The notes beneath the pieces are model-generated. The model had not been told where the DNA came from. It did not search any database and was given only the letters and a program-made list of their open reading frames with translations. Positions 15,149 to 20,092 of a stretch of DNA of 64,000 nt are shown here, one piece after another. Position 1 is the stretch's first letter; each line of letters opens with the position of its first letter. Source of the stretch: Nitrosomonadaceae bacterium. Its GTDB lineage: Bacteria; Pseudomonadota; Gammaproteobacteria; Burkholderiales; Nitrosomonadaceae. The translations under genes were made by a program, and so were the position numbers. The stretch spans positions 62,001-126,000 of the forward strand of contig BJGV01000002.1 in NCBI GenBank assembly GCA_014190895.1, written 5' to 3'.

Positions 15149-15949
15149 ATGACGATACATCTTAAATCTCTGCCAGAAATAGAAAAAATGCGAATTGCTG
15201 GCAAGCTTGCCTCCGAAGTGTTAGATTTTATAGCGCCTTTTGTTAAACCAGGAATAACCACTGACAAACTTGATTCGTTATGTTACGACTACATGGTTAA
15301 TACGCAAAAAACTATCCCTGCGCCACTCAATTATGCGCCACCAGGGTATTCACCTTACCCAAAATCTATTTGTACTTCAGTCAATCATCAAGTATGTCAC
15401 GGCGTGCCTGGCGAGAAGAAATTAAAAGCCGGTGACATTATTAATATCGATGTTACCGTCATCAAGGATGGCTATCATGGCGATACTAGTCGTATGTATT
15501 ACGTAGGTGAACCATTAATTCAAGCTAGGCGTCTGTGTGAAATTACTTATGAATCTATGTGGCGCGGCATCGAAGAAATTAAACCAGGCAGGCATCTTGG
15601 AGACGTTGGCTACGCTATTCAGAAGTTTTCTGAAAGTTTTGGATATAGCGTGGTAAGGGAATTTTGCGGTCATGGTATCGGTACAAAATTTCATGAGGAG
15701 CCACAAGTCCTTCATTACGGTCATTCTGGGACTGGATTACAACTTAAGGCTGGAATGATTTTTACAGTTGAGCCAATGATTAATGCAGGCAAAGCATCCA
15801 TACGTCAATTAGCTGATGGCTGGACCATCGTCACTAAGGACCATAGTTTGTCAGCGCAGTGGGAGCATACAGTACTTGTCACCGAAACTGGGTACGAAGT
15901 GTTAACGCTATCTATTGGGGCTCCATCAAAACCTACGTTTCATTCTTAA
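15149..15949 (+). CDS. map: Methionine aminopeptidase, type I
   Basis: 266-residue enzyme removing initiator methionine. The five metal ligands are D101, D112, H175, E208 and E239, each offset by 4 from the E. coli enzyme. The ATG at 15149 has GGA about 7 bases upstream; a TTG four codons earlier is a less likely start. glnD begins 5 bases after its stop. The Map substrate pathway (Def, Fmt) is encoded elsewhere in the window. Confidence 0.96.
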   Translation: MTIHLKSLPEIEKMRIAGKLASEVLDFIAPFVKPGITTDKLDSLCYDYMVNTQKTIPAPLNYAPPGYSPYPKSICTSVNHQVCHGVPGEKKLKAGDIINIDVTVIKDGYHGDTSRMYYVGEPLIQARRLCEITYESMWRGIEEIKPGRHLGDVGYAIQKFSESFGYSVVREFCGHGIGTKFHEEPQVLHYGHSGTGLQLKAGMIFTVEPMINAGKASIRQLADGWTIVTKDHSLSAQWEHTVLVTETGYEVLTLSIGAPSKPTFHS

Positions 15950-15954
15950 TTTTA

Positions 15955-18606
15955 ATGGAGAGTTTTCTTACAAAATCTTTGTCAGATTCATTTAGCTCTG
16001 CAGAAGGCAAAAAAATGCTCCGGCAGGGAAGAAAAATGCTCTGTCAAAACTATAATGAGACTAAAAATAGTGGTGCAATTTTGCTACGAGACCACTGTCG
16101 ATTGGTTGATAGCTTATTGCATCAGGCATGGCAAGAGACAGTAACATCTAGCTCAATTGCACTATTGGCAGTAGGAGGTTATGGACGGAGACAACTCTTC
16201 CCTGGTTCAGATATAGATTTACTGGTGCTAATTCCCGCCAAAGAAAAAAATACTGATGCGGTAGATAGCGTTACCAAATTGCAAATAGAGCGGTTAATCA
16301 GATTCTTTTGGGACATGGGTCTAGAAGTGAGTCACAGTGTCCGTACACTTGCTGAGTGCGTAGAGGAGTCGGTCAAAGACATTACAGTACAGACTAATTT
16401 ACTAGAGGCACGCCTGCTCGTCGGAAATTGTCAACTATTTAGTGAGCTTGAGAGCGTTATACGAGACACTACTAATCCAAATACATTTTTAACTGCCAAA
16501 TTATTTGAGCAGCAGTGTCGCCATAATCGTTATCATGGGGCAACAAATAATCTTGAGCCAAATTTGAAAGAAAGCCCTGGCGGTTTGCGAGACTTGCACA
16601 ATATTCTTTGGGTTAGTCATGTTGCCGGTACAGGGAAATCTTGGTTTGATCTTACCAAGGGTAAATTTATCACTTTGCAAGAAGCCCGTCTTGCAAATCG
16701 CTGTCAAACTTTCTTGCAAGATTTGCGTATTCGACTACACTATCTTACAGGGCGACAAGAAGACCGACTTCTGTTTGACTACCAAGCGCAGCTTGCAAAA
16801 GAATTAGGTATTATCGATAAGTCTCCGCGCTATGCCAGCGAAATCCTTATGCAACGTTATTATCGCGTTGCTAGGTCAGTTACTCAGATTAATAATATTC
16901 TTTTATTAGCGCTACAAGTCAAGATCTGTTCTGACATAGATACAACTCCAATTCCCATTAATAAGCGTTTTCAGAAATATGGTCAATTCTTAGAAATATG
17001 TACAGAAAGTATCTTTCAAGAAGACCCGAGCGCAATCTTTGAGAGCTCATTACTATTGCAACAGCACGCTGAACTGAAGGCTCGTAGCGCAGTTACTCTT
17101 CGAGCCTTGTGGCATGCCACAAAATTCATTAATTTAAAATTTAGGAATAATCCGCACAACCAATCTCTTTTCATGCAAATTCTACGTCAACCGCACAGGG
17201 TTACTCAAGAATTGCGTTTCATGAATCGCTACGGTATTTTGGGACGTTATTTAACATCATTTGGACGTATCGTGGGTCAGATGCAACATGATTTATTTCA
17301 TGTTTATACTGTAGATGAACACATCTTAATGGTGGTAAGAAATTTACGACGTTTTATGATACCAAAATTTTCTCAAGAACATCCTCTGTGTAGTGGACTC
17401 ATGGCCAAGTTTGATCGACCAGAAATACTGTATCTTGCCGGACTGTTTCATGACATCGCTAAGGGACGTAGCGGCGATCATTCTCTACTGGGTAAGAAGC
17501 ATGCAAAGCAATTTTGTAAGCAGCATGAAATATTTCAAGAGGACGCAGAGTTATTAGTGTGGCTAGTAGAAAATCATCTATTGATGTCAATTACAGCACA
17601 AAAGCAAGATTTGTCAGATAGAGATGTAATCAGCATTTTTGCTAAGCGAGTAAAAGATGACCGTCATCTTGTTGCCCTGTATTTGCTGACTGTTGCAGAT
17701 ATTTTAGGCACAAGTCCAAAAATATGGAATACATGGAAAGATAAGTTACTAGAGAATTTGTTTTGGATGACTCGACAATATTTAAATGATAAGTCGGGTT
17801 ATATCAACAGTGCGCTAGAGAGCAGAAAGATTAAAGTACTTGAATTATTAGCACTTAATAATACTTCTACCGAGGTATATGAGCGATTCTGGTCAGAGTT
17901 TGATGCCGCTTACCTATTAAAGCACGATCCGCAAGAAATTGCTTGGCATGCGCATCAGTTAATCGGTCACCTAGATTCGTCGGTACCGGTGGTGAAAGCG
18001 CGCGCCGTCCCAAATGGGGGAGGCATTCAGGTCATGGTTTACACCCCAGATCAAAAAAATCTATTTGCGTATATCTGTGGCTTTTTTGAGGGCATTAACT
18101 ACAGCATTGTTGAGGCAAAAATCTATACCACTAATCGTGGTTACGCCATCGATAGTTTTTTGGTGTTAAATCCATTTAAAGCCGTAGAGCAGTATCACAA
18201 TGTAATTAGTATCGTGGAGCATGAGTTGGCATACCAGCTAGAGCAGAAAATGCCTTTAGTGCCGCCTCCACAAGGAAGATTAAATCGTCACTTAAAGTAT
18301 TTTCCGATCACGCCCACGGTCGATATTGAACCCGATAGAAAGAGTTCTTATTACAGACTATCAATTGTTGCTGGTGATCAGATAGGATTGTTGTCAAGTA
18401 TTGCGCAAGTGTTGGTGCATTTCGGGGTAAATGTACATAGCGCGAAGATAAACACCCTGGGTGCGCGTGCTGAGGATATTTTCTGGGTAACAGGGAAGGT
18501 ACTGAGCGAACAAAAGAAGTTGTTGCATCTGAAGACAGAAATGCTAGCGATACTAGAAATTCCAAGTAATACAACTCTAATGCAATCAGTAAAATATTTA
18601 AACTAA
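15955..18606 (+). CDS. glnD: Bifunctional uridylyltransferase/uridylyl-removing enzyme GlnD
   Basis: About 883 residues. Nitrogen-status sensor that uridylylates PII proteins when glutamine is low and reverses this when it is high. Domains in order: nucleotidyltransferase with G-G-Y-G-R and G-S-D-I-D-L-L near residues 74-90, a GlnD helical linker, an HD domain (F-H-D-I-A-K-G-R-S-G-D-H-S near 500), and two C-terminal ACT domains. A longer reading frame extends back into map, but the ATG at 15955 gives the usual length. No glnB or glnK is in the window. Confidence 0.96.
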   Translation: MESFLTKSLSDSFSSAEGKKMLRQGRKMLCQNYNETKNSGAILLRDHCRLVDSLLHQAWQETVTSSSIALLAVGGYGRRQLFPGSDIDLLVLIPAKEKNTDAVDSVTKLQIERLIRFFWDMGLEVSHSVRTLAECVEESVKDITVQTNLLEARLLVGNCQLFSELESVIRDTTNPNTFLTAKLFEQQCRHNRYHGATNNLEPNLKESPGGLRDLHNILWVSHVAGTGKSWFDLTKGKFITLQEARLANRCQTFLQDLRIRLHYLTGRQEDRLLFDYQAQLAKELGIIDKSPRYASEILMQRYYRVARSVTQINNILLLALQVKICSDIDTTPIPINKRFQKYGQFLEICTESIFQEDPSAIFESSLLLQQHAELKARSAVTLRALWHATKFINLKFRNNPHNQSLFMQILRQPHRVTQELRFMNRYGILGRYLTSFGRIVGQMQHDLFHVYTVDEHILMVVRNLRRFMIPKFSQEHPLCSGLMAKFDRPEILYLAGLFHDIAKGRSGDHSLLGKKHAKQFCKQHEIFQEDAELLVWLVENHLLMSITAQKQDLSDRDVISIFAKRVKDDRHLVALYLLTVADILGTSPKIWNTWKDKLLENLFWMTRQYLNDKSGYINSALESRKIKVLELLALNNTSTEVYERFWSEFDAAYLLKHDPQEIAWHAHQLIGHLDSSVPVVKARAVPNGGGIQVMVYTPDQKNLFAYICGFFEGINYSIVEAKIYTTNRGYAIDSFLVLNPFKAVEQYHNVISIVEHELAYQLEQKMPLVPPPQGRLNRHLKYFPITPTVDIEPDRKSSYYRLSIVAGDQIGLLSSIAQVLVHFGVNVHSAKINTLGARAEDIFWVTGKVLSEQKKLLHLKTEMLAILEIPSNTTLMQSVKYLN

Positions 18607-18625
18607 GATCAACTGTTAAACTACT

Positions 18626-18658
18626 TTTAACAGACCCTTCTAATAGAGGTCTGTTAAA
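18626..18658. terminator. Bidirectional hairpin between glnD and the CADD-like gene
   Basis: An 11-bp perfect inverted repeat (TTTAACAGACC with GGTCTGTTAAA, 11-base loop) fills the gap between two convergent genes. The A/T-rich stem ends could serve as a short U-tract in either direction. Position and symmetry argue for a shared terminator. Confidence 0.6.
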
Positions 18659-18670
18659 GCGTTATCCCGT

Positions 18671-19417
18671 TTAGTGCATTATGGCTGGAGTTTTATCCTG
18701 GCTACAAGCAAGATCTGCACAGTAATTTTCATAGATTCCATCAAGGAAATTCCAGAGTGCGTCGCATGCTTTGGTGGTTGCGGCCAATACCTCCATTTGT
18801 TTTTCTGGACTGTTGGCAAAGCGCTCAATTAATTTCCATTCCGCCTGGGAATGATGTATATCAGCTTCTTGGTGTACCGTGAAGAATTCATAGTTTTTAG
18901 GATCTTTCATCCCATAGAACTTGGCTAGGCCGTCAATTTTTACAGCGGCAATTTCTGGCACTTGGGATTCAAATGCATACATCGCTGCAAGACCTGCATA
19001 AAATGGTTGATTCAAACAGATATCTCGAAATGTTGCTACTAGGTTAGCTGTACCCGGTAGTGCTGTTGCATTAGTTAAACTTTTATTGCTTGAGCCTAGG
19101 GCAAGGGCAAAAGTTTTCCAAAGGGCGGGATGATTTTTCTCCCCATACTCTTCACTGATTAAGTTTTTTAGAACCTCTTGTCGCACGCTGATATCCCCAC
19201 TATTTTCTTCAGTATGTAGGTGGGGAGTATTGAAATGAATCGCGCTCAAATAGGTTGGTTCAGCCAAAACATTATGAAAATACTGTTCCGCATAATGACG
19301 TAATTGGTCTTTAGATAATTTCCCTTCAGTCCAGGCAACATAAAAAGGATGTTTGAGCAAACTTTTAGCATTAATGATAGATTCAATATTTTGTTTGAGA
19401 GATATTTTGGCTGTCAT
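18671..19417 (-). CDS. CADD-like self-sacrificing p-aminobenzoate synthase
   Basis: 248-residue haem-oxygenase-fold protein of the CADD family (Chlamydia CT610, Nitrosomonas NE1434). From established work, these proteins give p-aminobenzoate without PabABC, using one of their own tyrosines as substrate at a dimetal site. The residues line up with CADD by my own comparison: tyrosine Y26 (H-P-F-Y-V-A-W), ligands E89, H96, E150, H182, D186 and H189, and lysine K160 (V-K-I-D-G-L). Start is set by AGAGGA upstream of the ATG. It stands alone, with its own likely promoter and a hairpin behind it. TenA and PqqC share the fold but not this residue set. Confidence 0.88.
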   Translation of the reverse strand: MTAKISLKQNIESIINAKSLLKHPFYVAWTEGKLSKDQLRHYAEQYFHNVLAEPTYLSAIHFNTPHLHTEENSGDISVRQEVLKNLISEEYGEKNHPALWKTFALALGSSNKSLTNATALPGTANLVATFRDICLNQPFYAGLAAMYAFESQVPEIAAVKIDGLAKFYGMKDPKNYEFFTVHQEADIHHSQAEWKLIERFANSPEKQMEVLAATTKACDALWNFLDGIYENYCADLACSQDKTPAIMH

Positions 19418-19465
19418 GATTTTTCCTCTTGAGCAGAGATAGGTAATTGATATATTAATATACGT

Positions 19466-19494
19466 ATCATCGTCAAATAATAGCTACAAGTCAA
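19466..19494 (-). promoter_or_regulatory. Candidate sigma-70 promoter for the CADD-like gene
   Basis: On the minus strand TTGACT is followed after 17 bases by GATGAT, about 50 bases before the ATG. The -35 is close to consensus and the -10 is weak, so this is tentative. Confidence 0.3.
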
Positions 19495-19672
19495 ATTTTA
19501 GCGAATGATATTATAATTTCATGGCAAAGAGACAGTTAAATTAGAGCCGTTCATTCTGAAACGGTCATTTGAATCACATTCGGAAGTGCCCATAGTTAGA
19601 AAATATTTTTTTGACTCTATTAATTTTAGATTAACGATTAAACTCTAGTTTCACTTACTCCCTGACAATTTT

Positions 19673-20092
19673 ATGGATGAACAGACAAGTCTTCTGACGT
19701 TGTTTATAAGCAGTTTTCTTGGCGCCACGTTACTTCCTGGGGGTTCAGAAGTAGTTTTATTGGGCGTCTTAGTTGCTCATCCCCAGCTCTACTGGTCAAT
19801 TTTGGTGGTCGCCTCGTTGGGCAATATTTTGGGCGGCATGAGCTCTTATGCTATTGGATGGTTTTTACCTGACGAAGAAGCGATCTTAAAAAAATTCAAG
19901 GGCAGCGCACGTGGGTTGAAGTGGGTGCGTCATCATGGTAGTCCCATACTGTTGTTAGCATGGGTACCCTTCATCGGAGATGTGTTATGTGTTGCAGCAG
20001 GATGGCTTAGAATTAATTGGTTATCTGCCATGTTATTTATGGCTGTGGGGAAATTTGTACGTTACTGGATAATAGCAATGACTATCAATTGA
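19673..20092 (+). CDS. YqaA-family (DedA-related) small membrane protein
   Basis: 139-residue inner-membrane protein related to YqaA and the SNARE-associated/DedA group. It opens with a hydrophobic segment containing G-A-T-L-L-P-G-G-S-E and continues with S-L-G-N-I-L-G-G-M-S-S-Y-A-I-G, both typical. A late V-P-F-I-G-D-V-L-C-V-A-A-G-W-L-R is the family's conserved re-entrant-like stretch. DedA proteins affect membrane potential and lipid flipping; the YqaA role is unknown. It stands alone. Confidence 0.82.
   Translation: MDEQTSLLTLFISSFLGATLLPGGSEVVLLGVLVAHPQLYWSILVVASLGNILGGMSSYAIGWFLPDEEAILKKFKGSARGLKWVRHHGSPILLLAWVPFIGDVLCVAAGWLRINWLSAMLFMAVGKFVRYWIIAMTIN

What the first reader, a model, noticed from the sequence alone, without database searches (positions are those of the whole stretch)
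18671..19417. CADD-like protein with all residues of the self-sacrificing PABA route
Seen: all six metal ligands of the Chlamydia CADD site (E89, H96, E150, H182, D186, H189), the tyrosine Y26 and lysine K160 are at matching spacing by my alignment from memory. Established: CADD (CT610) and Nitrosomonas NE1434 supply p-aminobenzoate without PabABC, by consuming an internal tyrosine. Inferred: this organism makes PABA this way. It costs one protein per PABA, so expression from a lone gene with its own terminator is of interest.
Basis: partly seen in the sequence, partly recalled or inferred. Interest (0 to 1): 0.75.

Follow-up and report, generated by a model that had tools for sequence, protein, structure and literature searches.

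The report
Self-sacrificing PABA synthase of ammonia oxidisers
This gene very probably encodes a protein that destroys one of its own tyrosines to make p-aminobenzoate, a folate building block; it is the enzyme already known from this bacterial family rather than a new kind, but in many relatives the gene unexpectedly sits beside the methionine synthase gene.

Summary
The 248-residue minus-strand protein at 18671-19417 belongs to NCBIfam TIGR04305 (292.7 bits, cut-off 200) and has every named residue. Its closest PDB match is deposited as 4-aminobenzoate synthase (9pj4). The genome (1.32 Mb, 25 contigs, 99.97% complete) has folK and folP but one chorismate-binding enzyme, TrpE, so no PabB was found. 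Of 37 genomes of its family, 35 have exactly one such enzyme; two, 72% and 51% complete, have none. The protein groups away from PqqC. The inference is supported, but the enzyme is already characterised in Nitrosomonas europaea (PMC11965152). F149 and F178 predict a di-iron cofactor. New context: in 21 of 23 family genomes with metE, metE lies within about 3 kb of pabS. Three loci carry two pabS copies flanking metR-metE, with identical middles in each genome. The window shows the arrangement without metE. No report of this linkage appeared in the listings of four paper searches, one seen only in part. No biochemistry could be tested.

The parts
18671..19417 (-). pabS: self-sacrificing p-aminobenzoate synthase (CADD / NePabS family), 248 aa; Y26 and K160 predicted to be consumed; E89, H96, E150, H182, D186, H189 predicted metal ligands; F149/F178 as in the Fe/Fe enzyme NePabS
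   Evidence: TIGR04305 292.7 bits; PDB 9pj4, 1rcw, 8va9 matches; residues; conservation; tree
19465..19494 (-). conserved promoter-like block of pabS, TTGACT-17-GATGAT, 48-77 bases upstream of the start codon
   Evidence: alignment of 15 upstream regions; best match per locus; its pattern at up to 3 mismatches hit 10 of 25 genomes, each time once and upstream of pabS; hexamers 9 of 12
19423..19429 (-). likely ribosome-binding site of pabS (AGAGGAA)
   Evidence: sequence; similar in most rows of the alignment
18625..18658 (.). intergenic hairpin between convergent glnD and pabS, possible two-way terminator without a clear T run
   Evidence: fold z -3.54 (minus) and -3.09 (plus); not listed by the terminator scan
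15859..18606 (+). glnD, convergent neighbour; marks the locus in relatives
   Evidence: NF002837 1174.1 bits; synteny
19673..20092 (+). small protein, divergent neighbour (called dedA in my scripts by eye; no NCBIfam hit); marks the locus in relatives
   Evidence: 0 families; synteny

Best explanation
The gene is the family's PabS, an orthologue of Nitrosomonas europaea NE1434 and a homologue of Chlamydia CADD, and is the organism's source of p-aminobenzoate. Each chain binds two metals (predicted Fe/Fe), activates O2, moves a radical through aromatic residues (Y46, W100) to Y26, cleaves the side chain of Y26 (leaving Gly) and takes the amino nitrogen from K160 (leaving aminoadipate); FolP then uses the PABA for folate. 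Shown here: family membership, residues, no PabB found, FolK and FolP present, the same pattern across the family. Taken from the published work on NePabS: the chemistry. Inferred: that this copy does the same, the Fe/Fe preference (F149, F178), and supply by steady expression from its own promoter.
For: TIGR04305 292.7 bits against PqqC 50.6; PDB 9pj4 433 bits; all residues, invariant in 90 of 90 CADD-type relatives; one chorismate-binding enzyme, TrpE, in the genome; exactly one in 35 of 37 family genomes, against two or more in 18 of 24 genomes of other families of the order (tally); pabS matched in 35 of 37 family genomes, over the cut-off in 34 and in contig-end fragments in G023, the two misses being 74% and 51% complete; folK, folP; published activity, Y25-to-Gly and K159-to-aminoadipate in NePabS (PMC11965152, parts 1-4 of 6 read). 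L127, 73% identical to the window protein, carries the NePabS peptides printed there (compared by eye).
Against: No experiment on this protein. Purified NePabS gave about 10 uM PABA from 150 uM chains, so efficient single turnover is not shown even there. Only the window genome's PF00425 protein was named TrpE; in relatives I counted hits without naming them. Six of 24 genomes outside the family also have a single PF00425 hit and no pabS over the cut-off (G038, G046, G052, G053, G054, G058), so one hit alone does not prove the self-sacrificing route. A D-amino-acid-transaminase-like PF01063 protein might act as PabC, but no PabB was found to feed it. PabA/TrpG was not searched.
Confidence: 0.93

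Rival explanations
1. The protein is a PqqC- or TenA-like oxidase that acts on a small molecule and does not consume itself.
For: Same superfamily: Pfam TENA_THI-4 81.5 bits and NCBIfam PqqC 50.6 bits.
Against: PqqC score far below its cut-off of 240; split from PqqC at 100/100; Y26 and K160 absent in the 4 PqqC homologues that aligned.
Confidence: 0.02
2. The organism takes up PABA or folate and the protein has another duty, as CADD is reported to have in host-cell death signalling.
For: CADD is described as a moonlighting protein (PMC11965152); the genome is small and could rely on neighbours.
Against: folK and folP are kept; the gene is found in 35 of 37 family genomes, none of which shows a second chorismate-binding enzyme, and the sacrificial residues are kept in all family rows aligned.
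Confidence: 0.04
3. A canonical PabABC exists but was missed because the assembly is in 25 contigs.
For: 25 contigs; an amoA-type protein expected in an ammonia oxidiser was also not found, though 5 of 8 genomes of the genus, this one included, show none, which fits loss of multi-copy genes in assembly.
Against: 99.97% complete; no family genome of 37 shows a second chorismate-binding enzyme, single-contig genomes G010, G015, G019 and G033 included.
Confidence: 0.01

Closest known systems
NePabS / NE1434 of Nitrosomonas europaea (self-sacrificing PABA synthase)
   Same: Same sacrificial Tyr and Lys, same two phenylalanines next to the metal site and a loop missing in CADD (PMC11965152); L127, which carries the peptides printed for NePabS, is 73% identical.
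   Different: Numbering shifted by one (Y26/K160 against Y25/K159); neighbours here are glnD and a small protein, in L127 glyA on one side and metR-metE on the other.
CADD / CT610 of Chlamydia trachomatis (PDB 1rcw, 8va9)
   Same: Ligand set and sacrificial tyrosine and lysine.
   Different: Y141 and Y170 of CADD are F149 and F178 here, which predicts Fe/Fe in place of Mn/Fe; CT610 clusters with folate genes (PMC1971073, passages seen), this gene does not.
PqqC (pyrroloquinoline-quinone synthase)
   Same: Same superfamily.
   Different: No Y26/K160 equivalents in the 4 aligned; separate clade.

Membership tests
Self-sacrificing PABA synthase (CADD/NePabS, TIGR04305) | Score above the curated cut-off of the family model | tested here: met
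   292.7 bits, cut-off 200
Self-sacrificing PABA synthase (CADD/NePabS, TIGR04305) | Sacrificial tyrosine and lysine at matching places | tested here: met
   Y26 and K160
Self-sacrificing PABA synthase (CADD/NePabS, TIGR04305) | Six metal ligands, three His and three carboxylates | tested here: met
   E89, H96, E150, H182, D186, H189
Self-sacrificing PABA synthase (CADD/NePabS, TIGR04305) | Other residues found essential or important in NePabS (Y41, Y45, W99) | tested here: met
   Y42, Y46, W100
Self-sacrificing PABA synthase (CADD/NePabS, TIGR04305) | Genome makes folate but lacks the chorismate route to PABA | tested here: met
   folK and folP present, no PabB found; PabA/TrpG not searched
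Self-sacrificing PABA synthase (CADD/NePabS, TIGR04305) | PABA made from the protein itself; complementation of a pab mutant | not testable with these tools
   needs purified protein and a pabABC deletion strain
Fe/Fe (NePabS-like) as against Mn/Fe (CADD-like) form | Phe at both positions next to the metal site | tested here: met
   F149 and F178, equivalents of NePabS F148/F177; the metals themselves were not tested
PqqC | Score above the PqqC cut-off | tested here: not met
   50.6 bits, cut-off 240; separate clade
TenA | Groups with TenA in a tree | not tested
   TenA was not put in the tree; only the broad Pfam model PF03070 was scored (81.5 bits)

The most novel reading that the evidence does not exclude
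In Nitrosomonadaceae the one-shot PABA synthase is tied to methionine synthesis. pabS sits beside metE in two distinct metR-metE cassettes; in some genomes one pabS copy has its own promoter while a second overlaps the metE stop codon, and gene conversion keeps the two alike. Supply of PABA, which costs one protein per molecule, would then rise with MetE, a folate-using enzyme. The lone pabS of the window would be what is left where metR-metE was lost and B12-dependent MetH kept. Against a simple operon: in the commonest Nitrosospira form pabS points at metR and has its own promoter, and no MetR-like site was seen upstream of pabS in the 7 loci scanned.
Probability: 0.35. Interest if true: 0.5.

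Novelty: new member of a known kind. Interest (0 to 1): 0.35.

Why it matters
It suggests that a whole family of ammonia oxidisers, down to genomes of 1.3 Mb, replaces the usual chorismate route to PABA by a protein that works once. The metE linkage and the paired copies give a testable hint on how such an expensive supply is dosed in the cell, which the biochemical paper leaves open (PMC11965152).

Tried and rejected
MetR control of pabS: a scan for the recalled MetR consensus TGAA-N5-TTCA found exact sites in 4 of 15 metR-metE spacers and 0 of 7 pabS upstream regions, so I do not claim it. A special operator in the pabS promoter: the block is strongly conserved (best 34 columns 0.87, 22 of them at 90% or more, 35 loci), but the hemA upstream region is as conserved (0.87, 19 columns, 27 loci) and metE nearly so (0.84, 21 loci), with prmC 0.82, grxD 0.79, map 0.73, dedA 0.67; hemL had 3 loci and was not scored. 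A plain conserved promoter is enough. A riboswitch: Rfam found only a tRNA in the window. Plasmid origin: tblastn in plasmids gave 11 records, all below 60% identity, the best 31%; phage and viral collections were not searched. A 6-pair inverted repeat at 19547-19564 was not found by my pattern in the other 18 upstream regions. Which locus form is ancestral (with or without metE, one or two pabS) was not tested; deletion of metR-metE by recombination between pabS copies is possible but unproven.

Full report
What is there. The interval 18671-19417 holds a 248-residue ORF on the minus strand. It scores 292.7 bits against NCBIfam TIGR04305 'CADD family putative folate metabolism protein' (cut-off 200), 50.6 against PqqC (cut-off 240) and 40.8 against BesC (cut-off 500). 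Its best PDB match is 9pj4, '4-aminobenzoate synthase' (433 bits), then CT610/CADD 1rcw and 8va9 (about 154 bits), then PqqC entries near 32 bits. The tool gives no organism for 9pj4; by eye its residues differ from the NePabS peptides printed in PMC11965152, so I take it as a close relative, not NE1434 itself.

Residues. Y42, Y46 and W100 match NePabS Y41, Y45 and W99, which matter for activity, and F149/F178 match NePabS F148/F177, whose change to Tyr moved that enzyme from Fe/Fe to Mn/Fe (PMC11965152, parts 1-4 of 6 read). In 90 distinct CADD-type relatives (73 at 65% identity or more, 6 at 45-65%, 11 at 30-45%) the eight residues and Y42, Y46 and W100 are invariant; position 149 is F in 74, Y in 15 and L in 1, position 178 is F in 86 and Y in 4. 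That set comes from 139 rows, 95 of them distinct, which include the window itself and 4 PqqC homologues; rows aligned over 180 residues or fewer were dropped. The four PqqC homologues (named) have H or N at Y26 and R at K160, though their alignment is weak; 4 other weak loci of the 8 fetched gave no alignment.

Genome context of function. The window's genome (G000) has 1,321,229 bases in 25 contigs, 99.97% complete. It holds one chorismate-binding enzyme, named TrpE by TIGR00564 at 569.4 bits (cut-off 517.7), while the PabB models listed stay below their cut-offs; two PF01063 proteins, IlvE and a D-amino-acid-transaminase-like protein, both below the PabC cut-offs; FolP (TIGR01496 317.6 bits); FolK; and a 1240-residue frame on C17 with the pterin-binding and the B12-dependent methionine synthase domains, read as MetH. 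PabA/TrpG was not searched. With no PabB found, the chorismate route looks closed, and the PABA need of FolP points to this protein.

Family-wide pattern. The best 80 of 116 confirmed relatives in the genome collection are mostly Nitrosospira, Nitrosovibrio and Nitrosomonas, with Leptolyngbyaceae, Ichthyocystis, Acidobacteriota, Gemmatimonadota, Thermoplasmata and Marinimicrobia further off. Of 37 f1 genomes, 35 have a pabS match (34 over the cut-off, G023 in contig-end fragments; misses 74% and 51% complete), and 35 have exactly one chorismate-binding enzyme (misses 72% and 51% complete). Of 24 genomes in other families of the order 18 have two or more and 6 have one. Fisher p is 2e-10 for 35 of 35 against 6 of 24, with no correction for kinship. 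The six single-hit outsiders show that one hit alone is not proof. Matches to the pabS model outside the family, in 7 of 24 genomes, are below its cut-off. A maximum-likelihood tree of 41 rows puts the window protein inside Nitrosomonadaceae beside small-genome relatives (95/92), 9pj4 among Nitrosomonas, and splits these from PqqC (100/100). Several outer branches are long, and TenA was not included.

Neighbourhood. In the window pabS lies between convergent glnD and a divergent small protein. The same genes mark the place in many relatives, often with metR-metE beside pabS. From, 23 of 37 family genomes have metE, and in 21 of them a metE and a pabS are on one contig within about 3 kb; the exceptions are G003 (different contigs) and G031 (about 151 kb apart), and G018 and G021 also have a second, distant metE. 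Forms seen: pabS, then convergent metR, then metE (Nitrosospira); a LysR-type gene, metE, pabS (Nitrosomonas), where MetE is about 55% and the LysR only 29-34% identical to the Nitrosospira ones, so a distinct cassette; glyA, pabS, metR, metE in L127 and L130, with MetE about 70% identical. The text of PMC11965152 mentions glyA (shmT) beside NE1434 (figures are not held). Fourteen family genomes have no metE hit, among them 7 of the 8 of the window's genus; 5 of those 8 have a MetH hit, and the three misses are 72%, 87% and 92% complete.

Two copies. L107 (G033), L108 (G035) and L009 (Nitrosospira Nl5) carry pabS, metR, metE, pabS with the copies 4.2 kb apart. Contigs ending in or beside pabS in G017, G023 and Nitrosospira NpAV fit the same form but were not joined. 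In L107 the second copy's ATG overlaps the metE stop by four bases, and by alignment the same holds in L108. Bases 61-600 of the gene are identical between the two copies in each of the three genomes but about 91% identical between G033 and G035. Upstream 60 bases agree by position (0.93 copy 1, 0.88 copy 2) and not across positions (0.43-0.48), the copy-2 stretch being metE coding sequence. Since both genomes share the junction with metE, the doubling looks older than their split and the middles were copied over each other later (gene conversion). Ends are mixed: the first 36 bases are 0.92 alike within L107 but 0.47 within L108; downstream 60 bases agree only 0.63 (copy 1) and 0.42 (copy 2) between the two genomes. 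In L009 the likeness reaches further upstream (0.83). The second copies in L107, L108 and L009 lack the promoter block.

Expression. A block TTGACT-17-GATGAT (19465-19494, minus strand) is shared by the 15 upstream regions aligned; per-locus best matches are, where some Nitrosospira loci score low because of a one-base shift. Its pattern at up to 3 mismatches hit 10 of 25 genomes (10 of 16 in the family, 0 of 9 outside), once each and upstream of pabS, with no hit for the reversed control; six family genomes had no hit at that limit. Its conservation equals that of the hemA upstream region, so I read it as an ordinary conserved promoter. The hairpin after the gene is shared with glnD.

Literature. 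PMC11965152 (parts 1-4 of 6 read) gives the chemistry. PMC13108848 (passages) treats CADD and NePabS as known self-sacrificial enzymes. PMC1971073 (passages) tied CT610 to folate genes in 2007. PMC9239080 (passages) reports streamlined freshwater Nitrosospira of 1.42 Mb and 40.7% G+C, much like this window (41.6% G+C); the words folate, methionine, cobalamin, B12 and auxotroph do not occur in its main text. PMC4239095 on methionine regulation (passage) names Nitrosospira once and has no word folate, TenA or PqqC. Listings of four searches combining PABA terms with metE, Nitrosomonas, Nitrosomonadaceae or gene neighbourhood showed no report of the metE linkage or of paired copies: 0 papers, 9 of 9 listed, 8 of 112 listed, 5 of 5 listed. 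Most subscription papers are not covered.

Verdict. The enzyme is known from the same bacterial family, so this is a new member of a known kind. The linkage with metE and the paired, gene-converted copies are the part worth following.

Noticed in passing
L107:6029-10980, L108:6082-11074, L009:5995-10961: Two pabS copies flank metR-metE; bases 61-600 are identical within each genome (gene conversion), and the second copy overlaps the metE stop in L107 and, by alignment, in L108.
   Followed up: yes
L062, L063, L064, L065: Four Leptolyngbyaceae cyanobacterium assemblies carry a pabS 58-59% identical to the window's, with Tyr at position 149 and Phe at 178, a natural mix of the CADD and NePabS settings. 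The three put in the tree fall next to the Nitrosomonadaceae clade, which suggests transfer.
   Followed up: partly
L069:5977-7844, L070:5974-7890: In two Candidatus Ichthyocystis genomes pabS is convergent with metK (named for L069, by eye for L070), another methionine-cycle neighbour.
   Followed up: partly
window genome G000: No amoA-type (PF02461) hit in a genome of an ammonia-oxidiser family; 5 of 8 genomes of the genus, this one included, show none, so loss of multi-copy genes in assembly is likely, but a non-oxidiser is not excluded.
   Followed up: partly
L123:6672-8456 (G008): No glnD hit at its usual place between map and pabS in this small-genome relative.
   Followed up: no
window:24102-24650: A 182-residue protein with weak similarity to TadA (40.4 bits, cut-off 150) and an N-terminal RRK stretch that looks like a signal sequence by eye.
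   Followed up: no
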